Source: Moraxellaceae bacterium REDSEA-S32_B1
Lineage (GTDB): Bacteria > Pseudomonadota > Gammaproteobacteria > Pseudomonadales > Moraxellaceae
Reading direction: 5' to 3'
Assembly: GCA_001626925.1 (NCBI GenBank)
Contig: LUOR01000005.1
Coordinates: forward strand, 1 to 64,000
DNA length: 64,000 nt
The translations under genes were made by a program, and so were the position numbers. Below are positions 4,870-61,536 of this stretch, one piece after another (the stretch's first letter is position 1; each line of letters opens with the position of its first letter). Below the pieces are notes generated by a model. That model saw only the letters and a list, made by a program, of their open reading frames with translations, was not told the DNA's origin and did no database searches.

Positions 4870-6368
4870 GGAATTAGAAAATTTAAAAAAGAATTGGCTT
4901 CGTAGGTAAGTCGTTCCTCACTTAGACCCGATAATCTTAATACACGCCATCGATGGCTATTTTGATGCTCAAGACTCAGTTTAATCAGTGTTCTACTGAT
5001 ACGCCGAATCTGATAGAAGCTTATGCTTTCACTATATTTTTGTAGAAATAATTGTGTAATGGGTAAAAGAGAAAGGTTCTTCTCAATGGTTGAATTGTTT
5101 GAGGTTTGTTTCATCCACCATTTTGCTGAACGTCTAGGACTATCCAAATCCCAGAGTAAATCATTGTTGAGTTTAATCAACTGTTTTACAAAGGACAAAT
5201 CACGGTTATGCCAATCCATTTTAGTACCTTGAGGGATATATTTCTGGTGAACCCCCCGATTGGTCTCTAATAACCAATGTTTATCGTTCCGGTATAACCA
5301 AGCATATAAAGCAGCATTTAAATCCCGAGCAGGCTTTATACCATTTTGTTTGATCAATCTCAGCCATTTTTCTCGCTGTTCTATTGTGAGATCAGTAATA
5401 CAGCTACTATTGACATCTATGTGATTATGTTTATTTATTTTACGGAAAGAGCGGACTTGGTTGAGAGTATCCACAAATGACCACTCTCTATTGATTAAAG
5501 CCTCAATCGCAATAATATGCTCCAAATAACTAAAGCTTTTGCGATGTTTTCTGAAAATATTATGTAACCAAGAGGTCTCGGAAGTTAAATCGGCTAAACA
5601 ATACTGCTCTAAAAATTTCTTTGACCAACGTGCTGTCATTTTTTCAAAAATTGATTCATGAGAAATCTGCTGTTGCCCCCGACTACAATCATTCTGCCGA
5701 GCCAATTCATAATAAAACATGGTCCATTGTTCATAGCTGGGTGATTCAGATGGCTGTAAGGACAATAACTCTAATAACTTGGACGTAATAAAAATGTGGT
5801 CAGGATTAGCGATGTTTTGTTTTGTTTTAGGACATGATTGATGAGATGGAACTAAAAAATTATGCCGATGCAATGATCTTAAATCCAAATCTGAGTCAAT
5901 GAGTTGACCGTGCTGGGGACAGCAAGCTCCCTGTATTTGCCATAACCGAAACCAATAATATTCACCATATTTCTTTAATTGTTCTGCTAAACATTGTGGG
6001 CAATAACGTAATTTATGAATGGGTGGAATACGTGAGGCATTAATTCCCAAAGCCAGATGAATCGAGCCTCGAGAAAGATCAGTCATCCACATTAAGCATT
6101 GTTGTCGTCTGTTTTCGGGAACAAAAGGGGCATAGATTGGAAACAGCGTATGCTGATAGGCAATATCCTGAACGGTAAATTGATGGTTCGGAAATTGGTA
6201 AATAATCGCGTTTAAGTGACAAGGCAAATCTACAGTTGCAATCACCTTACGGTTTTCAAAGACTTCATCCAGTAATTGTTTGGGACTGTCCAAAGCCAAA
6301 CGAGTCCCTGCCCGAGCCACAGTACTGTAAATCAGCTCGTGTTGGTAAGGCATGGGAAAGTTTAGCAT
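4866..6368 (-). CDS. tnsD: TnsD (TniQ family) target-selection protein
   Basis: NFPMPYQHELIYSTVARAG, SPKQLLDEVFENRKVIATVDLPCHL, RYCPQCLAEQLKKYGEYYWFRLWQ zinc finger, SESISFYQIRRISR; close in length and motif order to Tn7 TnsD. Confidence 0.93.
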   Translation of the reverse strand: MLNFPMPYQHELIYSTVARAGTRLALDSPKQLLDEVFENRKVIATVDLPCHLNAIIYQFPNHQFTVQDIAYQHTLFPIYAPFVPENRRQQCLMWMTDLSRGSIHLALGINASRIPPIHKLRYCPQCLAEQLKKYGEYYWFRLWQIQGACCPQHGQLIDSDLDLRSLHRHNFLVPSHQSCPKTKQNIANPDHIFITSKLLELLSLQPSESPSYEQWTMFYYELARQNDCSRGQQQISHESIFEKMTARWSKKFLEQYCLADLTSETSWLHNIFRKHRKSFSYLEHIIAIEALINREWSFVDTLNQVRSFRKINKHNHIDVNSSCITDLTIEQREKWLRLIKQNGIKPARDLNAALYAWLYRNDKHWLLETNRGVHQKYIPQGTKMDWHNRDLSFVKQLIKLNNDLLWDLDSPRRSAKWWMKQTSNNSTIEKNLSLLPITQLFLQKYSESISFYQIRRISRTLIKLSLEHQNSHRWRVLRLSGLSEERLTYEANSFLNFLIP

Positions 6369-10233: not shown

Positions 10234-11020
10234 GGCGAATGTCCTCCCACACTTCAATATCACCTAATGTAATTTCAGATAATTTGAGCTTTTTATAGTC
10301 CTTGGTGATATCAAAAATAAAATAACGTTGAGCAAGAAGCTCTCGAATTTCTGATAGCGATGAACCCAGTTCTAAATCATAGGCCTGATCTACTTTTTTA
10401 CTTAATTCGATTAATGTGAGATGAGGGTATTGAGCAAATTTTTGCATATAGTCATCAAGCTTTTCATAAACAGGAAGAGAAGATTCCCTCATAGCAGGAT
10501 AGAGCCATTTGATATTGTGAAGTACAGTCGCAGGAATATCTTTTTCTGTAAGAATGTACCAAGGTATCTTTGTGCTTTCCCAATATCTTCGTTCTAGCTC
10601 AAGCTTTTCAATGGTTCTGATATCCTCCAAATCTGTTACGTACTTGGTTTGGAGAACAAAATTGGGTTGCATGGAATCTTTACGATCTACATAAAAATCT
10701 GAACTCATAATTTGTAAGGTATTGCGCACTCTGGGATGAGTAATTTGAGCTTGTTCTGCAATTTGAGTTGTGGCTTGAAGTGGTAAAGGAAATTGTTCTC
10801 GAATATCAGTAACTGATGGATTCCAGTCTAAAAGTAGAAAGGTTGCAAGTTCTAAATCAGACAATAAGTGATGTGTACGTTTAGTTGTGTGCCCATATAC
10901 CCGATGTGAGCGACCTTTTGAACCAAAATCACGAACAGTCACCCAAGGCTTATAACTCTTTAAGTAGCCCTGACCACGACCTTCTTTAATCCAATTGCCT
11001 TGTTGTTTTTCAGTCGCCAT
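10217..11020 (-). CDS. tnsA: TnsA endonuclease
   Basis: IKEGRGQGYLKSYKPWVTVRDFGSKGRSHRVYGHTTKRTHHLLSDLELATFLLLDW and LELERRYWESTKIPWYILTEKDI align by eye with Tn7 TnsA. Confidence 0.95.
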   Translation of the reverse strand: MATEKQQGNWIKEGRGQGYLKSYKPWVTVRDFGSKGRSHRVYGHTTKRTHHLLSDLELATFLLLDWNPSVTDIREQFPLPLQATTQIAEQAQITHPRVRNTLQIMSSDFYVDRKDSMQPNFVLQTKYVTDLEDIRTIEKLELERRYWESTKIPWYILTEKDIPATVLHNIKWLYPAMRESSLPVYEKLDDYMQKFAQYPHLTLIELSKKVDQAYDLELGSSLSEIRELLAQRYFIFDITKDYKKLKLSEITLGDIEVWEDIRHVSNQ

Positions 11021-36990: not shown

Positions 36991-37902
36991 ATGCCTGCAT
37001 CTAATCCATTGAAAACATTTGCACTCGAAAAATTTTTAAGAATGTGTGTGCATTTTCCAAGTCGTCAAGGGCTTTCGCCATTCGTATTACGTCGCATGAT
37101 GGATAAAGCAGGTTTCTTTTTTCCAGTCGATAAGCGACTCGCATTTAGACAGTTAGAGCTTGCAGGTATGCAATGTGAGGAAATCCGACATAAACGAGAC
37201 CCTGCGACACAGCTGATTTTTCATATTCATGGTGGTGCTTTTTTCTTGGGCGGATTGGAGAGTCATCGTGGATTGATGTGTGACTTAGTCCGTGCCACAG
37301 GTGCGCAAGTGATTCATTTAAACTATCCACTTGCACCAGAACAGGTCTTTCCTTCGGCATTAAATACTTTGCAAGCGGCATATCTCGAAGCACTGGAGCA
37401 GGGCATTGCACCAAAAAATATTACGCTATCAGGTGATTCATGTGGTGGTAATCTCGCTTTGGCATTGTGTTTAAAGTTGCGAGATGAAAATTTACCATTG
37501 CCGAACGGTTTGATATTACTGTCGCCTTGGCTTGACTTATCTCTCAGTGGCGCGTCAATTCGACGCAATGCAAAGCATGATGCCTTGTTGTCTGAACAGT
37601 TACTGCGAGATGGTGTGAAGTATTACTTGAATGACAATGCCAGTGTTGATGAGCCTTATGTTTCGCCATTATTTGCCAACCTCAAAGGATTGCCTGAGAT
37701 ATTGATTCATGTCGGCAGTAAAGAAATTTTACTTGATGATGCGAAAAGATTTAAAGAAGCCGCTGACCGTGCCGATGTCGATTGCACATTGACGATTTAT
37801 TCAGGCATGTGGCACAACTTCCACATGTTCAATCACTGGATTGCACCAGCCAAAAAGGCACTGAGAGACATCACCAAGTTTGTTGATCGTATGGATCGCT
37901 AA
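36991..37902 (+). CDS. Alpha/beta hydrolase, HSL-like esterase/lipase
   Basis: HGGAFFLG, GDSCGGNLALAL, WHNFHMF. Confidence 0.92.
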   Translation: MPASNPLKTFALEKFLRMCVHFPSRQGLSPFVLRRMMDKAGFFFPVDKRLAFRQLELAGMQCEEIRHKRDPATQLIFHIHGGAFFLGGLESHRGLMCDLVRATGAQVIHLNYPLAPEQVFPSALNTLQAAYLEALEQGIAPKNITLSGDSCGGNLALALCLKLRDENLPLPNGLILLSPWLDLSLSGASIRRNAKHDALLSEQLLRDGVKYYLNDNASVDEPYVSPLFANLKGLPEILIHVGSKEILLDDAKRFKEAADRADVDCTLTIYSGMWHNFHMFNHWIAPAKKALRDITKFVDRMDR

Positions 37903-37928: not shown

Positions 37929-37944
37929 TGTTCCACGTGGAACG
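37929..37944. promoter_or_regulatory. parS-like centromere site tGTTCCACGTGGAACg
   Basis: 14-bp perfect palindrome GTTCCACGTGGAAC, as in Pseudomonas-type parS. Confidence 0.8.
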
Positions 37945-38438
37945 CTAATTAAGCCATTTATACATGACTAAGGCATCAACAAGACCTTGTTTGGGGTGGC
38001 TGAAGGCTTTTGGCAAGCGACCAACGATATCAAAACCTAGTATTTGCCAAAGTCGAATTGCACCATCATTAGTTTCCACGACAAAGTTAAATTGCATCGC
38101 AAGATAACCGAGTTCACGTGCGACCTGTTGAGAGTTCTCACACATTTTGGCAGCGACGCCTTGAGCTCGTGCGGATTCGGAGACCATATAGCCACAGTTG
38201 CTGACATGCGATCCGCCACCACTTTGATTGGTTTTGAGATAGTATGAACCTATAATTTCTCCGTCTTTTCATAAACATAAGTTCGGTTGGGCAAAGTCAT
38301 CCAAATGTCAAAAGCCTTGTCTTTCGTCACCTCACGATCAAAAGCATAGGTTTCGCCTGCCTCAGCGATAGGTTTAAAGAAGCGCCAAATTTGCTCAAAG
38401 TCGCCAGTTGTCGCTATGCGAATCATCATCATGCTCAT
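37945..38438 (-). pseudogene. GNAT family acetyltransferase interrupted by a -1 frameshift
   Basis: ORFs 38250..38438 and 37945..38187 join as ...YVYEKDGEIIGSYYLKTNQSGGGSHVSNCGYMVSESARAQG... if one T is added to the T4 run at 38266-38269. Confidence 0.9.
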
Positions 38439-38520
38439 TGAAAAAACAAGTCAGATTATAGGTGAATACACCCTTGAAAAGCTGTAATACAAAAGTGTGA
38501 ACTATAAAAAAAAACATAAA

Positions 38521-38570: not shown

Positions 38571-39569
38571 TTATTCACCAGCGAGTGAACATTCAAAGTT
38601 TGACTTATCAACGCTACAACGTGCTTTTTTCAACACTGACATCATTGATTTGTCATAAACGCCTTGCTTGGTCAAAGCAATACGTGATTCACGCATCATT
38701 TTTTGATAACCAATCTTGTCGTCAGCTGGAATATTCATTTTGTATTTCGCAGGAATACCCGCTTCAAGCTTAGAAATCGTGCTAAATGCTTTAGGCAATT
38801 GCTTCACGAACCAATCACGTGACTTTTGACCAAAGCCAGCAGGGAATTTGCTTGGATTGATCACAACATTCGCTGTGACGTGAAGAATTGGGAAGTTAAC
38901 CATCGCACCTTTTGAACCCAAGCCTTTGTGAAGCTCAAGTGGTTTGAATGCATATGCAGGCGCACCAATGATATCAACCTGACCGTTGTTAAACTTCGAT
39001 GCGAAATTGGTTACGTCAGATGAAACAGGTTGTGCACCGATTTGTTGAACCATTTTCTTTTGTGCAGAATCATAGTCTAGAACGGCAATTTTCTTACCTG
39101 CCGCTTTTGCAACAGAGTTGATGTTGCGATCGTTGACGAATAAGTAAGCAGAACCCAATGGGGCGATACCGACGACTTCATATTTTTTGTTCGAGCTAAC
39201 CATTTTGCCAGCATTACGAGAGTTCAAAGTGAAGCTGATTGCACTTTGCGCAACTTTATTGTTTGGTACTGCACCAATAGAATCAATAGAACCTACGAAT
39301 TTATTGAATTCACGAGCACGCATTGCGGTGAGGCTAACGCCATCACATTTGCCTGCTTTGAAATCTTCATTGGCAACACGCTCATCGGTGTAAGCCTTTA
39401 ACTGAACATCTGCACCCCAAGATTTCGCTTGTAACGCCCAGCCTTTCATTTGCTGATAAGCTTCACCTGAAGCACCAAGTAAGTCAAATACACACATTGT
39501 TGCTGCTTGAGTGTTAGACATTGCACCCATAGCGGAAGTTGCCACGATGGCTAGCGCAAGTTTTTTCAT
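38571..39569 (-). CDS. Putative periplasmic solute-binding protein (copy A)
   Basis: Signal peptide; paralogous to 42779..43798 (CVFDLxGxxGxxY, KAYTDERV, KKIAVLDYDxAQKKMVQQ). Confidence 0.75.
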   Translation of the reverse strand: MKKLALAIVATSAMGAMSNTQAATMCVFDLLGASGEAYQQMKGWALQAKSWGADVQLKAYTDERVANEDFKAGKCDGVSLTAMRAREFNKFVGSIDSIGAVPNNKVAQSAISFTLNSRNAGKMVSSNKKYEVVGIAPLGSAYLFVNDRNINSVAKAAGKKIAVLDYDSAQKKMVQQIGAQPVSSDVTNFASKFNNGQVDIIGAPAYAFKPLELHKGLGSKGAMVNFPILHVTANVVINPSKFPAGFGQKSRDWFVKQLPKAFSTISKLEAGIPAKYKMNIPADDKIGYQKMMRESRIALTKQGVYDKSMMSVLKKARCSVDKSNFECSLAGE

Positions 39570-42778: not shown

Positions 42779-43798
42779 TTATTTTTTTGAATATTGCTCA
42801 TCTTTGAGTGAACATTCAAAGTTTTGACGATCTTGGGCACAGCGAGCACGCCACAGCAGCTCCATCATTTTCTTATCATAAATGCCTTCTTTGGTGAGCT
42901 GAATGCGGGCTTCACGCATCATTTTTTGATAACCCAATTTGTCACCCTCAGGGATTTGCATCCAATATTTGGCAGGAATGTCATCTTTCATTTTACCAAG
43001 AATAGTGAAGGCACGAGGCAATTGTCCTTTGATCCACGTTCTTGATTTTTGACCAAATCCCGCAGGGAATTTTGCACTGTGAATGATCAGGTTGCCTGAT
43101 ACTTGCAGTAGTGGATAGTTGGCAATCGCACCTTTTGAACCAAGTCCTTTATAAAGCTCTAAAGGACGAAACACTGCAGCAGGTGCGCCAATGATATCGA
43201 CTTCACCATTGTTAAATTTTGAACCAAAATTGGTAACATCGGCGGAAACGGCTTGTGCGCCAACTTGTTGCACCATTTTTTTCTGCGCTTGATCGTAGTC
43301 TAACACCGCAATTTTCTTTCCTGCTGCCTTGGCGATGGTATTGATATTTCGATCATTTAAAAATAAATACGCATCACCGACTGGAACAATGCCGACGATT
43401 TCATATTTTCCTTGTTTCATGTCTTTGGCAAAGCGAGGATCAGCCAAGGTTTGCATAACTTTCACCGCCAGTTTTAAGCTTGGAATTGAACCAATCGAGT
43501 CGATCGAACCAGTGAAACTATTGAACTGACGACCACGCATCCCTGTGATACTTGCACCGTCACACTTACCAGCTTTAAAGTCTTCGGTTAGCACGCGCTC
43601 ATCGGTGTAGGCTTTCAGTTCGATATTTGCACCCCATTTTTTTGAAGCAAGTTGATAGTCTTTCATCAAGGCATAGACATCGCCTTGCGTACCAACAAGA
43701 TCAAATACACAGAAAGTTTGCTTAGCTTGCGCAGTATTCATGGCGAATGCGCTCATAGCGATCGTAGTCAGACCGAAAAGTTGAGTGATTTTTTTCAT
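42779..43798 (-). CDS. Putative periplasmic solute-binding protein (copy B)
   Basis: Paralogue of 38571..39569. Confidence 0.75.
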   Translation of the reverse strand: MKKITQLFGLTTIAMSAFAMNTAQAKQTFCVFDLVGTQGDVYALMKDYQLASKKWGANIELKAYTDERVLTEDFKAGKCDGASITGMRGRQFNSFTGSIDSIGSIPSLKLAVKVMQTLADPRFAKDMKQGKYEIVGIVPVGDAYLFLNDRNINTIAKAAGKKIAVLDYDQAQKKMVQQVGAQAVSADVTNFGSKFNNGEVDIIGAPAAVFRPLELYKGLGSKGAIANYPLLQVSGNLIIHSAKFPAGFGQKSRTWIKGQLPRAFTILGKMKDDIPAKYWMQIPEGDKLGYQKMMREARIQLTKEGIYDKKMMELLWRARCAQDRQNFECSLKDEQYSKK

Positions 43799-43964
43799 TG
43801 ATATTTCCTTATTGAGTTGCATTCGTGGAGTCATTCCGTGACTGCATTTTTGTTTTTCAAAGCGATTGGATCAAGTATATGCGCTGAAATGCTGACCTAC
43901 ATTGGTCAAAATGACATGCGCTTACATGTCATTCGCAATGCTTGTCTTCAATATTAGTCGATTT

Positions 43965-44935: not shown

Positions 44936-44963
44936 TCAGCAGTATAGTAGTAATTCCAGCTCT

Positions 44964-44999
44964 AAAAAATGACCACACAATGCGGGTGGTCATTTTTTA
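44964..44999. terminator. Bidirectional terminator
   Basis: aaaaaatgaccacacaatgcgggtggtcatttttta. Confidence 0.85.
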
Positions 45000-45021
45000 T
45001 TTAATCAACTACATTTGCACA

Positions 45022-46114: not shown

Positions 46115-48953
46115 ATTTTCTCTCTTCACCAGTGCCAGATGGCAAGTTGATGATACAACGTGAACATAATCCCTCATGACCTGCATGGGTGTTCACATCA
46201 GGGAGCACATGCCAACAACGCACACATTTCTCACCTTCTGCGCTGGATACCGCAACACGTAAGCCGCCGATGTCCGTTGCTTCACCTTTTGATTCATCAA
46301 AGGTGTGTACAGCAACTTGCGAAGTGATGAGTACAAAGCGTAATTCATTTTCCAAGCGGTCAAGAATGGCTTTTAATGTCTCATCCGCCCAAATATCAAC
46401 TTTGGCAGAGAGATTTGAACCGACCAATTTGGCATTACGTGCCGCTTCGATTTGCCTATTCACCGCAGATTTGACTTGGATCAGACTTTGCCAATCGGAC
46501 TCGCTGATTAAGTTTTGTTGATTTGATTTTGGTAAATCATACCACTCGGCAGTAAATACATATTTTTCTGTTTGCTCAGGAATCAGTTCCCACGCCTCTT
46601 GTGCGGTAAAGCTCAAGATCGGACTCATCCAACGCACAAAGGCTTGCACCAAATGATACAACGCCGTTTGTGCCGAGTGACGTGCTTGTGAGTCGGCTTT
46701 GCTGGTGTACTGACGATCTTTGATGATGTCGAGATAGAAACCGCCCAAGTCATTAATACAGAAATTCGTGAGCGCATTGGTCACAACATGGAAATTCATT
46801 TCGTCGTAGGCTTTGCGAATTGTTGCTTGCACTTCGCTAGAACGTTGAATGATGTATTGATCTAATGCAATCAACTCATCCATCGGTAGTGCATCACGAC
46901 TTGGCACAAAACCGTTCAAATTTGCCAGCATAAAACGCAAAGTATTACGAATACGGCGGTAGCTGTCCGATACCCGATTGAAAATTTCTTTCGATGCGGC
47001 GATTTCATAGCGATAATCGCTCGAAGCCACGTACAGGCGTAGACCGTCTGCACCGAGTTGCTTGATAATTTCTTCTAATGGAATGTAATTGCCCAAAGAT
47101 TTTGACAATTTTCGACCATTTTCATCGACGGTAAAACCGTGCGTCAGCAATGACTTATACGGCGCATGACCACGCACACCGATACTGGCAAGCAAAGAGG
47201 TTTGGAACCAGCCACGATGTTGATCCGACCCTTCGAGATACAAATCAGCAGGGCTTTGTAAGTCGGTACGTTGATCAAGCACGGCAAAATGCGTTGTACC
47301 CGAATCAAACCATACGTCTAAAGTGTCACGCACACAGTTGTATTGTTCCGCATCTTCTTCAGACAAGAAGTCTTTGCCGTCACGGTTAAACCATGCGTCA
47401 ACACCTTCTTGTTCGATGAGTTTGGCGACTTCTTCGATCAGCTCAGGCGTGCGTGGATGCAGTTCATTGCTGTCTTTATGCACGAAAAATGGAATCGGAA
47501 CGCCCCACGTGCGTTGACGAGAGATACACCAATCTGGACGACCATCGACCATGGATTGCATCCGATTTTTACCCCAGTCAGGAATAAATTCGATGTTGTT
47601 TTCAATCTCATTTAAAGCCGTTTCACGCATTCCACATTGTTCCATGTTGATAAACCATTGTGGTGTTGCACGGAAGATGATTGGTGTTTTATGGCGCCAG
47701 CAGTGTGGATAGCTGTGCGTGATTTTTTTATGCGCCCATAAACGACCCGTTGCACCGAGTTTTTCAATGATTTGCGGATTGGCTTTATAAATGTGCTCAC
47801 CTGCGAAGATCGGTGCAGTCGGGAGATAGACACCATTTGCGCCAACAGGATTGTCCACGGCAAGGCGATATTGTAAACCGACTTTATAATCGTCCACACC
47901 ATGACCTGGTGCAGTATGTACCGCACCTGTACCACTATCTGCGGTGACGTGTTCACCTAAAATCACAGGCACTTGGCGTTCAGCGATCAAGGGATGTTGT
48001 AATAATAAACCTTCGAGTTTGTCCCCTGTAAAATTCGCCAAAATTTTTGGATTTTCCAGTTGATAACGCTCACATGCCGAAGCGACCAATTCTTTCGCTA
48101 AAATTAAATTATGTGTTCCACGATCTGATTGCAATTCAACCAATTGATATTCAATTTCAGCATGTAAAGCGATTGCTTGGTTGGCAGGCAAGGTCCATGG
48201 TGTGGTCGTCCAGATCACAATATCGGTTGCTGTGCTGACAGATACACCGAGCTTCGCTGACAAATCCGCAAGATCAACGACACCAAATCCAACATCAATG
48301 GCATCAGACTTTTTATCTTCATATTCTACTTCGGCTTCAGCCAGCGCAGAACCACAGTCCAAGCACCAATTGACTGGTTTTAGACCCGATTGGATGTGAC
48401 CATTTTTCTGAATTGCTGCAAGTGAACGAACAATATCCGCTTCTTGCTTAAAGTTCATGGTCAGATATGGATTGTCCCAATCGCCAAAGACGCCTAGACG
48501 TTTAAAATCTTTTTTCTGCAACTCTACTTGGCTTAGTGCATATTCACGGCAGGCTTGACGGAACGTCGTTGCGTCGACTTTGACGCCAACTTTACCGATT
48601 TTTTCTTCGACTTTCAGCTCGATCGGCAGACCATGACAGTCCCAACCCGGTACATACGGCGCATCCATGCCGTCCATGACACGGCTTTTTACGATAATAT
48701 CTTTTAACACTTTATTCACCGCATGACCAAGGTGAATACTGCCGTTGGCGTATGGAGGACCATCATGCAGAATGTATTTTTTCTTGCCCATTCGAGATGC
48801 ACGAATCTGCTGATAAATGTCGTCGGCGTACCAGTCGTCTAACCATTTTGCTTCACGTACCGCCAAGTTGGCTTTCATGGCAAAATCAGTCTGTGGCAAG
48901 TTGAGTGTGGCTTTATAATCCACGACATTTTCAGAAGGTTGCTTATCGCTCAT
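46107..48953 (-). CDS. ileS: Isoleucyl-tRNA synthetase
   Basis: DGPPYANGSIHLGHAVNK, GRKLSKSLGN, C-terminal zinc cysteines CVRCWH..CSRC. Confidence 0.97.
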   Translation of the reverse strand: MSDKQPSENVVDYKATLNLPQTDFAMKANLAVREAKWLDDWYADDIYQQIRASRMGKKKYILHDGPPYANGSIHLGHAVNKVLKDIIVKSRVMDGMDAPYVPGWDCHGLPIELKVEEKIGKVGVKVDATTFRQACREYALSQVELQKKDFKRLGVFGDWDNPYLTMNFKQEADIVRSLAAIQKNGHIQSGLKPVNWCLDCGSALAEAEVEYEDKKSDAIDVGFGVVDLADLSAKLGVSVSTATDIVIWTTTPWTLPANQAIALHAEIEYQLVELQSDRGTHNLILAKELVASACERYQLENPKILANFTGDKLEGLLLQHPLIAERQVPVILGEHVTADSGTGAVHTAPGHGVDDYKVGLQYRLAVDNPVGANGVYLPTAPIFAGEHIYKANPQIIEKLGATGRLWAHKKITHSYPHCWRHKTPIIFRATPQWFINMEQCGMRETALNEIENNIEFIPDWGKNRMQSMVDGRPDWCISRQRTWGVPIPFFVHKDSNELHPRTPELIEEVAKLIEQEGVDAWFNRDGKDFLSEEDAEQYNCVRDTLDVWFDSGTTHFAVLDQRTDLQSPADLYLEGSDQHRGWFQTSLLASIGVRGHAPYKSLLTHGFTVDENGRKLSKSLGNYIPLEEIIKQLGADGLRLYVASSDYRYEIAASKEIFNRVSDSYRRIRNTLRFMLANLNGFVPSRDALPMDELIALDQYIIQRSSEVQATIRKAYDEMNFHVVTNALTNFCINDLGGFYLDIIKDRQYTSKADSQARHSAQTALYHLVQAFVRWMSPILSFTAQEAWELIPEQTEKYVFTAEWYDLPKSNQQNLISESDWQSLIQVKSAVNRQIEAARNAKLVGSNLSAKVDIWADETLKAILDRLENELRFVLITSQVAVHTFDESKGEATDIGGLRVAVSSAEGEKCVRCWHVLPDVNTHAGHEGLCSRCIINLPSGTGEERKYA

Positions 48954-53292: not shown

Positions 53293-53487
53293 TGCTTAGT
53301 GAATATATAAAGAAAAACATAAAAAATCATAAACTGTTGAAAGCCTGATCAAAAGTGAATTCCAACTAAAAAAGGTTTAGTTTATATATAGGATAACTGT
53401 AACTAAATTAAAAATTTGTTGTAAAAACAAGTAGTACTATTATCATAAAAAAATAAATGCATCACATATTGTGTGGAGATTGTGAAA

Positions 53488-56400
53488 ATGAATAAAATAT
53501 ATCGTGTAATTTGGAATGCTTCACAGGGCGTGTGGGTCGCAGTCTCTGAAATTGCAAAAGCCAAAGGCAAAACAAAATCGATCAAAAAAGCGACCGCTAT
53601 CGGTGTATTAACAATAGTCACTTCGACGGGTGCAATAGCAGCTCAAACGATTGATGATGATTTGATTGTTAATGGAGACATTACTGTTTCTGGCACGGTG
53701 GATGGTGTCGATGTTTCTGATTTGGCGACCACTGTTGCAGATAAAGCAGATCAAACCGCTTTAGACGGTTTAGCTACGACTGTGAACTCGAAAGCAGATC
53801 AAACCGCTTTAGACAGTCTAACCACGACTGTAAATACCAAAGCAGATCAGACCGATTTAGATACATTATCAAACCAAGTGAATGACGCAACCACTGGTTT
53901 AGATACTAAAGCTTCGCAAACAGACTTGGATGACTTATCTGATGTGGTTGATACCAAAGCAGATCAAACAGATTTAGATAGTTTAACAACAACAGTAAAC
54001 AGCAAAGCGAATCAAACTGATCTAGACACATTATCCAGTCAAGTCAATGACGCAACCACTGGTTTAGATACCAAAGCCTCGCAAACAGACTTGGACGACT
54101 TGTCTGATGTGGTTGATACCAAAGCAGATCAAACCGATTTAGACAGTCTAACCACGACTGTAAATACCAAAGCAGATCAGACGGACTTAGACACATTATC
54201 AAACCAAGTGAATGACACAACCACTGGTTTAGATACTAAAGCTTCACAAACAGACTTGGATGACTTATCTGATGTTGTTGATACCAAAGCAGATCAAACC
54301 GATTTAGATAGTCTAACAACAACAGTAAACAGCAAAGCGGATCAAACTGATCTAGACACATTATCCAATCAAGTCAATGATCCCACTACTGGCTTAGCGA
54401 CCAAGGCGAGCCTCGCTCAAGTCGCAGCAGCCAAAACCGAAGTGGTAGCAGGCGATAATATTGCAGTAACCACGAGCACAGGCTCCGATGGACAGACGGT
54501 TTATAACGTCGCAACAACGGATGATGTCAACTTTAACCAAGTGACAATTGGTGATACAGCTGGGGACAATACCGTATTGACCAGCACATCAGCTGGTTTA
54601 GATGTAGGTACTGACAAAATCACCAATCTTAGCAATGGGGATGTATCAGACGGCTCATCTGATGCGATCACTGGTGATCAGCTATACGACCTGAGAACAG
54701 AGTTGTTTGGTGATAGTGCCACGCCTGCGAGTGGCATTAAATATTTTAGAGCGAATTCGACATTAGATGATGCTGCGGCGATAGGTACCGATTCGGTAGC
54801 GATAGGTCCTGAGGCACAGGCACAAGGCACATCCAGTATTGCGATGGGGCAAGCGGCAACCGCATTGGATAGTAGCGGTATTGCGATCGGTGCCGAAAGT
54901 CAAGCATTAGGCGGTAATAGCACAGCGATTGGTTCGGCAGCGACGAGTCGAACCATTAGTGTTGAGTATGAGTCTGCAACTTCGACCACTGTAATCGCAA
55001 TCAATGGCATTCCAGTGGAGGCAACCAGTAGTACAGCAGGTAGTCAGGATATTAACAATCTGACGATTACATCGATCAATGGTGTCGATGTAAGTACCAA
55101 TGCACCACTTTACACTCAATTTCTAAGTGCACTGCAAAGTGGTGCAAGTGTCGCACTTGGTGAGAATAGCTTTGCAGCAGGCACGTCTACGCTTGCAGTG
55201 GGTGACTCAAGTGTTGCGCTAGGTGATAGTGCGGTTGCAGGTGCGAATAACTCCACGGCAATCGGTCATGCTGCCAGCTCGTCAGGTAGTGCATCTGCTG
55301 CACTCGGTAACAGTGCCAGTGCCACAGGCAGTGCCTCGACATCGTTGGGGAGTAGCTCTACAGCCAGTGGCTCTGACAGTGTCGCAGTGGGTAGTGGTGC
55401 ACAAGCCTTAACACAAAGCTCTGTATCTATTGGTGATGGCGCTGGTGTTGGCACTGTGGGTACAAAAATTGGTTCTGGCGCAACCACAGATCGTATTGAG
55501 CATATCGCTATCGGTGCTAACTCAGGTCAAAATGTGGTGGGTAACCAAAATATTGCCTTAGGTAGCGGGGCGGGTTCAAACTTATCTGTTGGTGATACCA
55601 CCAGTTCAGATCAAAACATTGCCATTGGTGTCAATGCAGGGAGTGGGCATAATGGTGATAGCAATATCTCTATTGGTGAAAATGCCAACAGAAATGTGAG
55701 CAATAAAAACTTAAGTAAATCTGTAGCGATTGGCTCACAGGCACAATCGGGTAATCAGGCTGTCGTCCTTGGTGCGGATGCTGAAGCGAAGCGTAATAAT
55801 GCACTAGCAGCAGGCTATAGTGCAGAAGTCACAGGTGCTTCTGGTACAGCACTAGGTGCCAATACCACAGCTGGGGCAAGTAATGTTGCGCTTGGTGCAA
55901 ATAGCATTGCATCAACCAATTCAACAACAGCATCATATTTGGTGACAGACACTGTACCGACAGCTGGCTTTAATGTAGTGTCTGTTGGTGGTGGATCAGG
56001 GAGTAATGTGGTCACTCGTCGCATCACCAATGTAGCAGCAGGTGGTGATGCGACCGATGCGGTCAATGTATCGCAACTAAGACAGTTAAACGAAGATGTC
56101 GCTGAGAAACTATTTGGCACATCCGTGACCAATGTGTCCAGCGGGGTGATCACTGATGGTTCAGGCAATAACTATACCAGCTTCTTGGATGCGATTCAAA
56201 ATTTAACTGCAGGTACAGGCACGCCTGCTTCTAGCGATGCGGTTTTGTATAATGTTGGGGATACTACAAAAGTACAACTCACAGGTGCGGGTGGTACAAC
56301 GATTAGCAATGTCAAAACTGATGAAACAGATGGTACTTCAGCTGCCAATGTGGATTATGTCAATAATGCAGTAAAAGATGCTTCAGTCAAGTATGTATCG

Positions 56401-59400
56401 ATTAACAGCACTGAAAGCGAAAACGAAAACAGTCAAGAAGCACATGCTATTGACTCAATGGCGATTGGTTCTGATGTTGCAACAACAAGCGCTGCGACTG
56501 ATAGTGTGGCAATCGGATTTGCGGGTGTAACTGCAGAAAATACCAATACTGTTGCGATTGGTAGCAACACAACTAGTGCCAAAGGTGCATCTTCGATAGC
56601 GATAGGTGATGATGCAGAAGCTTCAAATATCAATAATATTGCAATGGGTACAGATGCAATCGCTGCAGGTATTGATAGTATTGCGATCGGACATAACACT
56701 CAGGTTGATAAAACAGGTGGGCAGTCTGATTATGCAGTGGTGATCGGAAGTAGTGCAGAATCACAAAATGCTGACAATGCTACAGCGATCGGTCATACAG
56801 CCGTTGTGCAAGGTGACCAAGGCATCGCTATTGGTAATATCTCTAAAGCAGTCGGTCGAAACAGTATTGCGATGGGGGATAATGCACTTGCGACAGGTGA
56901 AGATGCTGTGGCAATTGGTGAAAAAAGTAATGCCGTTGGGCGAGAGTCTGTGGCAGTGGGTGATAGTAATAATACCTATGCTACAGAGAGTATTGCGGTC
57001 GGTAAGGGTAACAATGTCGGATTATCCACTGTATTGTCCGGCCAATCACAAACATCGCTCTCCGGTGTTCTCGGTAATGGAAACAATGTCAGAGCGAGTA
57101 ATAGCTTTGCAATTGGTAATGCGAATGACGTAGTCAACGCATCATCCGACACTTTTATTTTAGGCAGTAATGTCACCAATACCACCAATGATTCCGTGTT
57201 CTTAGGCAATGAATCAGGTTTTGTAGCGAGCAATACGACGACTCGAGGCAAAGCAACCTATAACACCGAAACAGTGGATGGTATCGCCTATAACTATGCA
57301 GGTGGTACGGCGACAGGAGTCGTGTCTGTTGGCAATGCGTCAGAGAAACGTCGTATCCAAAATGTCGCTGCGGGTCTCGTCAGTGCGAGCAGTACCGATG
57401 CCATCAATGGTAGTCAGCTCTATAGCACTAATGTTGCCTTAAGTAATTTACAAAAGTCTACGGCGACAAATTTGGGTGGAGGTGCTACAGTCAATAGTGA
57501 TGGTTCAGTGAATGCACCAACGTATACTGTCATTACCAATCCAAGTAGCAATACAAGCACTACCTATAATAATGTTGGTGATGCGCTAACAGGATTGAGT
57601 ACCGCAGTAAATCGACCAATTACATTTACTGGCGATAGCGGTTCTACGCAAAGAAAATTGGGTAGTACCTTAATCATTAAAGGTGGTAAAACTACTGGAC
57701 TCACTGAAAATAATATTGGTGTGATTACTACTGACTCTACCATGACGGTGAAGTTAGCAGAAGATATTGATTTGGGTGCCAATGGTAGCGTCAAAATGGG
57801 TGATACATCCATTGATACGGACGGATTGGTGATCGCAAATACAGACCCAACAAAAGTGGTCAGTATTAAAGATACAGGGATTAGTGCGGGTAGTAATAAA
57901 ATCACCAATGTAGCAGCTGGAGATGTAACAAGCACATCGACTGATGCGGTGAATGGCAGTCAGCTTTATGCGACCAATCAGAATGTCACCAATGCTCAAA
58001 ATACAGCAAATACTGCATTAAGCACTGCCAATAAAGGCTTGAATTTTGCCCTGAACAATGTCAATCCTGACAATCTTGCGCTGGGTGATACGGTTAGCTT
58101 TAATAATGGCACCAACACTACAGCAACTTATGATGGTACCACCAATACTTATCAATATAATCTAAATGACAGGATTACACTCACCAATGCTGGTGGTATT
58201 AGCATTCTTAATACTGCTGGGACAGGAAGCGCCGTTGCGATAGATCAAAGTGGTGTTCAAGCAGGTAATGTTAAACTCAATACCTCTACAGGTAAGATTA
58301 CGGGTCTGACCGCAGGTACAGTGAGTGGCACAAGTACAGAAGGCATTAACGGAACTCAGCTCTTCAACAATGCCAGCTCTGTATCGACTGCACTAGGTGG
58401 TGGTTCAAATGTGAGTTCAACTGGAACAGTTATTGCACCAAGCTACACAGTGACCACGAATCCATCGACTGGTGCAAGCACGACAGCAAACAATGTGGGT
58501 GATGCGTTGAGTGGATTGAACACTGCAGTGAATCAACCATTGACCTTTGCAGGCGATACAGGTGCAGACGTTACACGTCAACTGGGTAGTATATTGAATG
58601 TCGAAGGTGGCGCATCAGGTACATTGACTGATAATAACATTGGTGTAGTTGCGAATGGCACAGACACCTTGACGGTGAAATTGGCAGAAGACATTGATCT
58701 AGGTGCAACAGGTAGCGTGACTACAGGTAATACTGTGGTGAACACTAACGGATTGACCATCACGAATCCGACAGATAGCACGAAGACAGTCAGTGTGACC
58801 TCAGGCGGTATCAATGCGGGTGGCAACGTCATTAGCAATGTTGCAGCAGGCAGTGCAGCGACAGATGCAGTGAATGTATCACAATTGGAAGATGCACAAG
58901 CTGCAGCGACAACCGAAGTTGTTGAAGGCAAAAATATCTCTGTGAGTAGCTCGATTGGTACAGATGGACAAACGATCTATACGGTAGCGACGGATGAAGA
59001 TGTTAACTTTAACCAAGTGACCATTGGCAGTACGACGGGTAATAACACTATATTGACCAGTACAGCAGATGGCTTAAGTGTTGGAGGAGACAAGATCACC
59101 AATGTAGCGGCTGGCACGATCAGTGACACCAGTACCGATGCAGTGAATGGTAGTCAGTTGTATGACACTAACCAACAAGTTTCAAGCAACACCACCAACA
59201 TCGCAAATAATACTGCGGATATTGCAGACAATACTGCAGAGATTGCCAAAGGGCTTAACTTTGGTGATGGCGCAACTAGCAATAATTACGCCTTAGGTGA
59301 CACCATTAATGTGACCGAAGCGGACAGTAACATCGAAACCACGACTACCTCGACGGGTGTATCAGTTGGTTTGGCGGATGATATCAGTGTAGAAAGTGTG

Positions 59401-61536
59401 ACTGTGGGTGATAGTACTAATAGTACCGTTTTAACCAGCACAGCGAATGGTTTAAGTGTCAATAATGACAAGATTACCAATGTAGCGGCTGGCACGATCA
59501 GTGACACCAGTACCGATGCTGTAAATGGTAGTCAGTTGTATGACACTAACCAACAAGTAGCAGGGAATACCAGTGCTTTGGGTGGTGGTGCAAACTATGA
59601 TCCAGCAACGAATACCTATACTGCACCAACGTATAACATCAATGGCACCGACTACAGCGATGTTGGCAGTGCTCTCGCAGCGAGCAAAACAGAAGTAAAA
59701 GATGGCAAAAACATTACTGTGACCAGTACAACAGGCACAGATGGACAAATGGTCTATACGGTCGCAACTGATGACGAAGTTGAATTTGACAAAGTGACTG
59801 TGGGTAATGTTGTGGTTGATGCTACAACGAATGACATTACAGGCTTATCGAACACCGCATTGGGTGGCACTGATTTTGCGCAAAGTGGACGTGCAGCGAC
59901 AGAAGAGCAATTGAATGAAACACAAGATAACCTTGTGACCTTGATTGGCGGTAATGCAAGCAATCAAGGCGGAACGGTCACGACTACGGACATTGGTGGC
60001 ACAGGTGCAGACAATGTTAATGATGCAATCGAAACCGTAAATAACACAGCGAAAGCATCGAAAACTGAAGTTAAAAAAGGTCAGAACATCTCTGTAACCA
60101 GTACGACTGGGTCTGATGGACAAACGATCTATACGGTCGCAACTGATGATGACGTGAACTTTAACAGTGTAACCATTGGTGATACAGCTGGCGATAACAC
60201 CGTATTGACTAGCACAACAGATGGCTTAGATGTTGGTGGAGACAAGATCACCAATGTAGCGGCTGGAACGATCAGTGATGGTAGTACCGATGCTGTAAAT
60301 GGTAGTCAACTCTATGGCTTGGGTAATAATGTTACCAATCTCTTTGGTGGTAATGCGACCTATGATGGTGATGTGATTAATTGGACTGATATTGGTGGTA
60401 CAGGTGAAAACACCATTGATGATGCGATTGCTTCGATCAAAGACTCTGCGGATAATGCCAATCAAGGCTGGAATATCTCGACGAATGGTGGCACTGCAAC
60501 CAATGTGAAACCTGCAGATACTGTTGATTTCCAAGGTGATGGCAATGTTGTCGTCAGCAATACAGGTACGGAAGTGACCGTTGGCTTGGCTGATCAAGTC
60601 ACCATTGGTACAGGTGATACTGCCGTATCGATTGATGGTGATACAGGTACGATTACCACTGGTGATGTCACTATTGATGGTTCAACAGGTATTATTACTG
60701 CTGGACAAGTCACTGTTGATGGTGATCAAGGTACAGTGAATGGACTCAGCAATACGACTTGGGATGCAGACAATATTACGTCTGGTCAAGCAGCAACTGA
60801 GGATCAGTTGAAACAAGTTGCAGCCGATGCAGCAAGTAATACGGCTAAGTCGAAATCGACAGTCACTGCTGGTGATAACATTGAAGTCACCACATCAGAA
60901 AATACCGATGGGTCTACCAATTATGAAGTTGCGACAGCGAAAGATGTCACATTTGAAACAGTGACCTCAGACACTGTAACCGCTGGAACGGTGACAGCCG
61001 ATACAGTCAATGTCGGTGATGTGTCGATTACGTCATCAGGGATCCATGCTGGCAACCAAAAAGTCACAAATTTGGCGGCGGGTACAGTGAGTTCAGACTC
61101 AACTGATGCAGTCAATGGTAGTCAGCTCTATGGTCATGCTCAAGCAGTGCAAAACATTATCGGTGGATCAACCACTTATAATGCAGATACTGGCACTTAT
61201 ACCAATAATAATATTGGTGGTACAGGTCAAAGCACCATTGATGCAGCGATTGGTGCAGTCAACAATAATGTGACTTATCTCAATCAACGTGTGAATGATT
61301 TGGAAGATGATCTATCTTCTGGTATTGCTGCGACAGCAGCACTTGAGAACGCACCATTTATTCCTGGTAAATGGACTTATGCGGCAGGTGCATCTTATTA
61401 CAACGATCAAAGTGCAATTGGTGCGACATTAAGACGTACCGCGGATAACGGTCGTTGGTCATTCACTGGTGGTGTTGCTGGAGGTACGAATGGTTCACCA
61501 ATCGTTCGCTTCGGTGTCAGTGGTGTGATTGACTAA
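53488..61536 (+). CDS. Trimeric autotransporter adhesin, Ata/AtaA type (~2680 aa)
   Basis: ESPR signal MNKIYRVIWNASQGVWVAVSEIAKAKGK, YadA-like head repeats, repeated neck/stalk motifs KITNVAAGxxSxxSTDAVNGSQLY, C-terminal YadA anchor. Confidence 0.96.
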   Translation: MNKIYRVIWNASQGVWVAVSEIAKAKGKTKSIKKATAIGVLTIVTSTGAIAAQTIDDDLIVNGDITVSGTVDGVDVSDLATTVADKADQTALDGLATTVNSKADQTALDSLTTTVNTKADQTDLDTLSNQVNDATTGLDTKASQTDLDDLSDVVDTKADQTDLDSLTTTVNSKANQTDLDTLSSQVNDATTGLDTKASQTDLDDLSDVVDTKADQTDLDSLTTTVNTKADQTDLDTLSNQVNDTTTGLDTKASQTDLDDLSDVVDTKADQTDLDSLTTTVNSKADQTDLDTLSNQVNDPTTGLATKASLAQVAAAKTEVVAGDNIAVTTSTGSDGQTVYNVATTDDVNFNQVTIGDTAGDNTVLTSTSAGLDVGTDKITNLSNGDVSDGSSDAITGDQLYDLRTELFGDSATPASGIKYFRANSTLDDAAAIGTDSVAIGPEAQAQGTSSIAMGQAATALDSSGIAIGAESQALGGNSTAIGSAATSRTISVEYESATSTTVIAINGIPVEATSSTAGSQDINNLTITSINGVDVSTNAPLYTQFLSALQSGASVALGENSFAAGTSTLAVGDSSVALGDSAVAGANNSTAIGHAASSSGSASAALGNSASATGSASTSLGSSSTASGSDSVAVGSGAQALTQSSVSIGDGAGVGTVGTKIGSGATTDRIEHIAIGANSGQNVVGNQNIALGSGAGSNLSVGDTTSSDQNIAIGVNAGSGHNGDSNISIGENANRNVSNKNLSKSVAIGSQAQSGNQAVVLGADAEAKRNNALAAGYSAEVTGASGTALGANTTAGASNVALGANSIASTNSTTASYLVTDTVPTAGFNVVSVGGGSGSNVVTRRITNVAAGGDATDAVNVSQLRQLNEDVAEKLFGTSVTNVSSGVITDGSGNNYTSFLDAIQNLTAGTGTPASSDAVLYNVGDTTKVQLTGAGGTTISNVKTDETDGTSAANVDYVNNAVKDASVKYVSINSTESENENSQEAHAIDSMAIGSDVATTSAATDSVAIGFAGVTAENTNTVAIGSNTTSAKGASSIAIGDDAEASNINNIAMGTDAIAAGIDSIAIGHNTQVDKTGGQSDYAVVIGSSAESQNADNATAIGHTAVVQGDQGIAIGNISKAVGRNSIAMGDNALATGEDAVAIGEKSNAVGRESVAVGDSNNTYATESIAVGKGNNVGLSTVLSGQSQTSLSGVLGNGNNVRASNSFAIGNANDVVNASSDTFILGSNVTNTTNDSVFLGNESGFVASNTTTRGKATYNTETVDGIAYNYAGGTATGVVSVGNASEKRRIQNVAAGLVSASSTDAINGSQLYSTNVALSNLQKSTATNLGGGATVNSDGSVNAPTYTVITNPSSNTSTTYNNVGDALTGLSTAVNRPITFTGDSGSTQRKLGSTLIIKGGKTTGLTENNIGVITTDSTMTVKLAEDIDLGANGSVKMGDTSIDTDGLVIANTDPTKVVSIKDTGISAGSNKITNVAAGDVTSTSTDAVNGSQLYATNQNVTNAQNTANTALSTANKGLNFALNNVNPDNLALGDTVSFNNGTNTTATYDGTTNTYQYNLNDRITLTNAGGISILNTAGTGSAVAIDQSGVQAGNVKLNTSTGKITGLTAGTVSGTSTEGINGTQLFNNASSVSTALGGGSNVSSTGTVIAPSYTVTTNPSTGASTTANNVGDALSGLNTAVNQPLTFAGDTGADVTRQLGSILNVEGGASGTLTDNNIGVVANGTDTLTVKLAEDIDLGATGSVTTGNTVVNTNGLTITNPTDSTKTVSVTSGGINAGGNVISNVAAGSAATDAVNVSQLEDAQAAATTEVVEGKNISVSSSIGTDGQTIYTVATDEDVNFNQVTIGSTTGNNTILTSTADGLSVGGDKITNVAAGTISDTSTDAVNGSQLYDTNQQVSSNTTNIANNTADIADNTAEIAKGLNFGDGATSNNYALGDTINVTEADSNIETTTTSTGVSVGLADDISVESVTVGDSTNSTVLTSTANGLSVNNDKITNVAAGTISDTSTDAVNGSQLYDTNQQVAGNTSALGGGANYDPATNTYTAPTYNINGTDYSDVGSALAASKTEVKDGKNITVTSTTGTDGQMVYTVATDDEVEFDKVTVGNVVVDATTNDITGLSNTALGGTDFAQSGRAATEEQLNETQDNLVTLIGGNASNQGGTVTTTDIGGTGADNVNDAIETVNNTAKASKTEVKKGQNISVTSTTGSDGQTIYTVATDDDVNFNSVTIGDTAGDNTVLTSTTDGLDVGGDKITNVAAGTISDGSTDAVNGSQLYGLGNNVTNLFGGNATYDGDVINWTDIGGTGENTIDDAIASIKDSADNANQGWNISTNGGTATNVKPADTVDFQGDGNVVVSNTGTEVTVGLADQVTIGTGDTAVSIDGDTGTITTGDVTIDGSTGIITAGQVTVDGDQGTVNGLSNTTWDADNITSGQAATEDQLKQVAADAASNTAKSKSTVTAGDNIEVTTSENTDGSTNYEVATAKDVTFETVTSDTVTAGTVTADTVNVGDVSITSSGIHAGNQKVTNLAAGTVSSDSTDAVNGSQLYGHAQAVQNIIGGSTTYNADTGTYTNNNIGGTGQSTIDAAIGAVNNNVTYLNQRVNDLEDDLSSGIAATAALENAPFIPGKWTYAAGASYYNDQSAIGATLRRTADNGRWSFTGGVAGGTNGSPIVRFGVSGVID
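53725..54405 (+). repeat. Coding tandem repeats: 165-bp (55-aa) unit arranged as a 330-bp A-B-A'-B' array
   Basis: accacgactgtaaataccaaagcagatcag at 53821 and 54151 (exactly 330 bp apart); unit TKADQTDLDTLSNQVNDATTGLDTKASQTDLDDLSDVVD. Confidence 0.9.

What the first reader, a model, noticed from the sequence alone, without database searches (positions are those of the whole stretch)
37929..37944. parS-like chromosome partition site next to a pseudogene
Seen: tGTTCCACGTGGAACg, a 14-bp perfect palindrome and the only full match I found in the window. Established: Pseudomonas-type parS is TGTTCCACGTGGAAC(A/C), bound by ParB and usually near oriC. Inference: the window lies in the origin-proximal ParB region, and the site overlaps the 3' end of the decayed GNAT gene.
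Basis: partly seen in the sequence, partly recalled or inferred. Interest (0 to 1): 0.6.

Follow-up and report, generated by a model that had tools for sequence, protein, structure and literature searches.

The report
Origin-proximal parS site in Acinetobacter
The 14-letter DNA palindrome is a genuine chromosome-partition (parS) site near the replication origin of an Acinetobacter species, an ordinary kind of site; less expected is that the genes for the proteins predicted to act on it lie in the opposite half of the chromosome in every closed genome checked in this bacterial family.

Summary
Confirmed. GTTCCACGTGGAAC (37930-37943) is the window's only exact copy; about 0.001 Y/R-type 14-mers are expected by chance. 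The window comes from a draft Acinetobacter genome with seven GTTYCACGTGRAAC sites (about 0.04 expected), all on three contigs; four of them surround dnaA. All seven recur in the relative A. sedimenti. There the equivalent of this site lies 37 kb from dnaA and carries a substitution that keeps it within the parS consensus. The spacer before the site is not detectably conserved. The genome encodes one TIGR00180-type ParB with parS-type, not Noc-type, specificity residues. Best reading: a typical auxiliary parS of a chromosomal ParABS system. ParB binding was not tested.

The window is origin-proximal but does not contain parAB.

Unexpected by-product: in 18 of 18 closed Moraxellaceae chromosomes, all 104 located parS sites lie within 10% of chromosome length of dnaA, yet parB lies 30-49% away, against the usual ori-proximal parAB. 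I found no report of this in the searchable open-access literature.

The parts
37930..37943 (.). parS core GTTCCACGTGGAAC, perfect palindrome
37929..37944 (.). 16-bp parS as usually written, TGTTCCACGTGGAACG (last base departs from the palindrome)
   Evidence: compared with P. aeruginosa parS1-4 in PMC4368675
36991..37902 (+). alpha/beta-hydrolase (Abhydrolase_3 esterase) gene upstream of the site; its 3' end is the landmark after which the site recurs in three relatives
37945..38440 (-). decayed GNAT acetyltransferase, convergent with the esterase; N-terminal part in another frame than the C-terminal part; stop codon 1 bp from parS

Best explanation
This is one of seven parS centromere-like sites of the chromosomal ParABS system of an Acinetobacter species. 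It lies in the short gap between two convergent genes in the origin region. ParB is expected to load on it as a CTP-dependent clamp and spread onto the neighbouring DNA. Together with the sites around dnaA, the complex would be moved by ParA so that newly replicated origins separate first, and it may also load condensin. Shown here: the sequence, its rarity, the clustering near dnaA, its conservation in position with consensus-preserving change, and the presence of one ParA/ParB pair with parS-type specificity residues. Inferred from the family: ParB binding, spreading, ParA-driven movement and condensin loading. Because a single origin-proximal parS suffices in Pseudomonas, this site is probably redundant with the four next to dnaA.
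For: Exact palindrome, chance expectation 0.0012 per window and 0.04 per genome, 7 sites found. All 7 lie on three contigs totalling 186 kb of 2.38 Mb, four of them flanking dnaA. All 119 genomes sampled from the genus carry the motif; the reversed control was zero in all but one genome. In closed Moraxellaceae genomes 104 of 104 located sites lie within 10% of chromosome length of dnaA. All seven sites recur in A. sedimenti; this one is GTTCCACGTGAAAC there and 37 kb from dnaA. The site also recurs after the esterase in two other genomes, one of them with a different downstream gene. The spacer between esterase and parS is not detectably conserved: its alignment score is reached by 58 of 500 shuffles. 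ParB over the TIGR00180 cut-off and ParA are present; R173 and G201 are kept and there is no Lys at 179 or 184 (PMC7383237).
Against: No binding data. The site is absent after the esterase orthologue in A. populi, A. puyangensis and 12 more distant species, so this particular copy is lineage-specific. Contig breaks prevent measuring its distance to dnaA in this genome itself. Two parS-contacting positions of Caulobacter ParB differ here (Q162 to H, S172 to A).
Confidence: 0.95

Rival explanations
1. The palindrome is a former parS that no longer matters: an origin-region copy that still matches but gives no measurable ParB enrichment or segregation benefit because the dnaA-flanking sites suffice.
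For: The site is missing at this place in more distant species. One parS is enough in P. aeruginosa (PMC5098823, PMC4368675).
Against: It is kept in three relatives although the upstream spacer has diverged, and the one change in A. sedimenti stays within the Y/R consensus. A perfect core predicts high affinity in P. aeruginosa (PMC4368675).
Confidence: 0.1
2. An operator of a local regulator or a transcription terminator between the convergent genes.
For: Palindrome placed between two convergent genes.
Against: The same 14-mer family recurs genome-wide only on origin-region contigs, including inside a coding sequence at C45:70341. In one relative it follows the esterase next to a different gene. 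There is no T tract after it.
Confidence: 0.02
3. Chance match.
For: None beyond the shortness of the motif.
Against: About 0.001 expected per window, conservation in position, and genomic clustering.
Confidence: 0.01

Closest known systems
Pseudomonas aeruginosa parS1-parS4
   Same: Core GTTCCACGTGGAAC identical to all four; cluster close to oriC; TGTTCCACGTGGAAC(A/C) (PMC4368675, PMC5098823)
   Different: Last base G here; in P. aeruginosa parAB is about 7-8 kb from oriC (PMC4368675, PMC2895232), whereas here parAB is on a contig that corresponds to the terminus half in relatives
Bacillus subtilis / general parS TGTTNCACGTGAAACA
   Same: Same CACGTG core and half-site; other sites of this genome are of the GTTTCACGTGAAAC or mixed type
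   Different: This site is the fully CC/GG (Pseudomonas) variant
Noc binding site (NBS) of Firmicutes
   Same: Related ParB/Noc recognition
   Different: Different half-site; the ParB here keeps R173 and G201 and lacks the permissive lysines, so it is not Noc-like (PMC7383237)

Membership tests
chromosomal parS | 16-bp palindrome TGTTYCACGTGRAACA or near match | tested here: met
   14/14 core, 15/16 overall
chromosomal parS | Clustered near oriC/dnaA | tested here: met
   37 kb from dnaA in A. sedimenti; four sites flank dnaA on contig C42 of this genome. The exact distance in this genome cannot be measured because of contig breaks
chromosomal parS | Genome encodes a chromosomal ParB and ParA | tested here: met
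   ParB E=1.5e-59 at C44:18126-18665, ParA immediately upstream on the same strand
chromosomal parS | Conserved in position under selection | tested here: met
   Kept in three relatives with consensus-preserving changes; absent in others
chromosomal parS | Bound by ParB in vitro and in vivo | not testable with these tools
   Needs ChIP-seq or a binding assay
canonical origin-proximal ParABS locus | parAB operon inside the ori domain (20% of chromosome around oriC) | tested here: not met
   parB 30-49% of chromosome length from dnaA in 18 of 18 closed Moraxellaceae chromosomes; own parAB contig is collinear with the G047 locus at 45%. Not measurable directly in the fragmented own genome

The most novel reading that the evidence does not exclude
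In Moraxellaceae the ParABS system is physically split. The parS centromeres stay at the origin, while the rsmG-parA-parB operon sits in the terminus half of the chromosome and lies away from the origin in every closed genome checked. This would uncouple ParAB gene dosage from parS dosage during fast growth, so that partition strength falls as origin number rises. The genomic fact is well supported here; the functional consequence is untested.
Probability: 0.35. Interest if true: 0.5.

Novelty: new member of a known kind. Interest (0 to 1): 0.33.

Why it matters
The site itself is a routine but solid annotation: a map of seven parS sites for an Acinetobacter lineage whose partition system I could not find described in the open-access library. 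The by-product is more useful. The common statement that chromosomal par operons lie next to oriC does not hold for the sampled Moraxellaceae, which include Acinetobacter. That makes the family a natural test of whether linkage of parAB to the origin matters for segregation or only parS position does.

Tried and rejected
Looking for the site at the esterase orthologue in distant species found none. Looking for parS beside parAB found no site with 2 or fewer mismatches on contig C44. In G047 there was one single-mismatch candidate, GTTCCAAGTGAAAC about 34 kb from parB, with a broken core. Rfam and tRNA scans of the window gave nothing. Literature searches for Acinetobacter chromosomal parS or displaced parAB found nothing relevant. 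The operator/terminator and chance readings were rejected on genomic distribution. No in-session outgroup control for parAB position could be run because genome searches were exhausted; Pseudomonas values come from papers.

Full report
OBSERVATION. The sequence GTTCCACGTGGAAC is at 37930-37943, exact and palindromic, the only copy in the window; the next best match has three mismatches, as chance predicts. A dinucleotide model gives 0.00015 expected exact copies in 64 kb, 0.0012 for the four-member family GTTYCACGTGRAAC, and 0.04 for that family in the whole 2.38-Mb draft genome. The site lies 27 bp after the stop of an Abhydrolase_3 esterase (36991-37902, +) and 1 bp from the stop codon of a convergent GNAT acetyltransferase remnant (37945-37947, -), so it abuts but does not overlap the GNAT frame.

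GENOME-WIDE DISTRIBUTION. The window is bases 1-64000 of a 76-kb contig (C45) in a draft of 80 contigs. The genome has seven GTTYCACGTGRAAC sites: C45:37930, C45:70341 (inside a ferredoxin-reductase-like gene), C42:26422, 32429, 46340 and 50229, and C77:28918. dnaA is at C42:34236-35618, between four of them. All 119 genomes sampled from the genus have the motif, 1-10 copies each; the reversed pattern was zero in all but one genome, which had one.

ORIGIN PROXIMITY. Most genes of C45 that find a match in the sampled origin-region stretches of closed genome G047 map within about 190 kb of dnaA, although shuffled in order (only the stretches were searched, so this does not exclude better matches elsewhere). 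In the close relative A. sedimenti (L051 = G145), one contig carries the equivalent of this site at 10655 and dnaA at 47404-48771, 37 kb apart. Relative to A. sedimenti, the window shows rearrangement breakpoints near 29.5 kb and 44.95 kb, compatible with an inversion spanning dnaA, so the distance in this genome may be larger; contig ends prevent a measurement.

CONSERVATION. All seven sites recur in A. sedimenti; in the uncultured Acinetobacter genome G172 (L050) seven sites are also present, and the positions that could be aligned coincide. At the window position A. sedimenti has GTTCCACGTGAAAC and G172 has GTTCCACGTGGAAC. A third, more distant genome (L054 = G031) has GTTTCACGTGGAAC after the esterase, next to a different downstream gene. 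The spacer between esterase and parS is not detectably conserved between the window and G172: its alignment score is reached by 58 of 500 shuffles. Keeping the 14-mer while the spacer changes, with substitutions only at the Y/R positions, is what a ParB-bound site should show. A. populi, A. puyangensis and 12 other species lack it there, so copies are gained and lost while the cluster persists.

PARTNER PROTEINS. The genome encodes one TIGR00180 ParB (E=1.5e-59) preceded by ParA and rsmG/gidB-like genes on contig C44. Its closest solved relatives are ParB/Spo0J chains, among them Caulobacter ParB 6t1f. At the positions that separate ParB from Noc specificity (PMC7383237) it has R at 173 and G at 201 and no lysine at 179 or 184, so parS, not NBS, is the expected target; contacts G170, K171, N178 and R204 are kept, while 162 and 172 differ from Caulobacter.

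MECHANISM. By analogy with established ParABS systems, ParB loads at parS, spreads, and is moved by ParA so that origins separate first; in P. aeruginosa one origin-proximal parS suffices and parS works only within a region of about 650 kb around oriC (PMC5098823, PMC4368675). The present site probably falls in a comparable zone. That part is inferred, not shown here.

UNEXPECTED: SPLIT OF parS AND parAB. The par operon is normally in the ori domain (PMC7022226), about 7-8 kb from oriC in P. aeruginosa (PMC4368675, PMC2895232). In 18 closed Moraxellaceae chromosomes (11 Acinetobacter, 7 from three other genera) all 104 located parS sites were within 10% of chromosome length of dnaA (median 0.6%), but parB was 30-49% away in every one (for G064 only 3 of 5 sites were listed). 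Contig C44 of the own genome is collinear with the G047 parB neighbourhood, at 45% from dnaA; from the translated starts I read the shared order as rsmG-parA-parB-exbB-exbD-msbA-lpxK-kdsB, gene names other than parA/parB being my reading rather than a family search. No parS with 2 or fewer mismatches lies on C44. One ancestral relocation explains this; the genomes are related, so it is not 18 independent events. I found no paper stating it in the open-access library, but subscription literature was not searchable and it may be known.

PSEUDOGENE. The GNAT gene is split by a frameshift in a short T run; A. sedimenti has an open frame, and the other relative (L050) has two internal stops. It is a decaying gene in this lineage, though a single-base assembly error in the window copy cannot be excluded. 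It has no visible bearing on parS function.

VERDICT. Interest is modest, raised somewhat by the family-wide separation of parAB from its centromeres.

Noticed in passing
Own contig C44 (L048:17886-19582, minus strand) and 18 closed Moraxellaceae genomes: parA-parB lies 30-49% of chromosome length from dnaA in all closed genomes checked, while all located parS sites are origin-proximal.
   Followed up: partly
window 29476 and 44936-45021: Synteny breakpoints against A. sedimenti, compatible with an inversion spanning dnaA plus inserted DNA in window 1-29400.
   Followed up: partly
window 37945-38440 (-): GNAT acetyltransferase gene frameshifted here, with internal stops in relative L050, and open in A. 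sedimenti (L051): repeated decay.
   Followed up: partly
window 38571-39569 and 42779-43834 (-): Two AdeT1/2-type solute-binding protein paralogues (PF19582) flank an ABC-F-like ATPase gene and an iron-sulphur-assembly-like gene.
   Followed up: no
window 53473-61536 (+): Very long open frame (about 2,690 codons), with no counterpart in the sampled regions of closed genome G047 and outside the aligned blocks of the A. sedimenti contig.
   Followed up: no
L010:5790-6845, site at 6341 (contig C45:70341): A second perfect parS lies inside a ferredoxin-reductase-like coding sequence and is kept in both close relatives.
   Followed up: partly
G185:C1:892181-907839: Another Moraxellaceae genus has 14 exact parS sites, eleven of them within 16 kb at dnaA, some less than 70 bp apart.
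   Followed up: no
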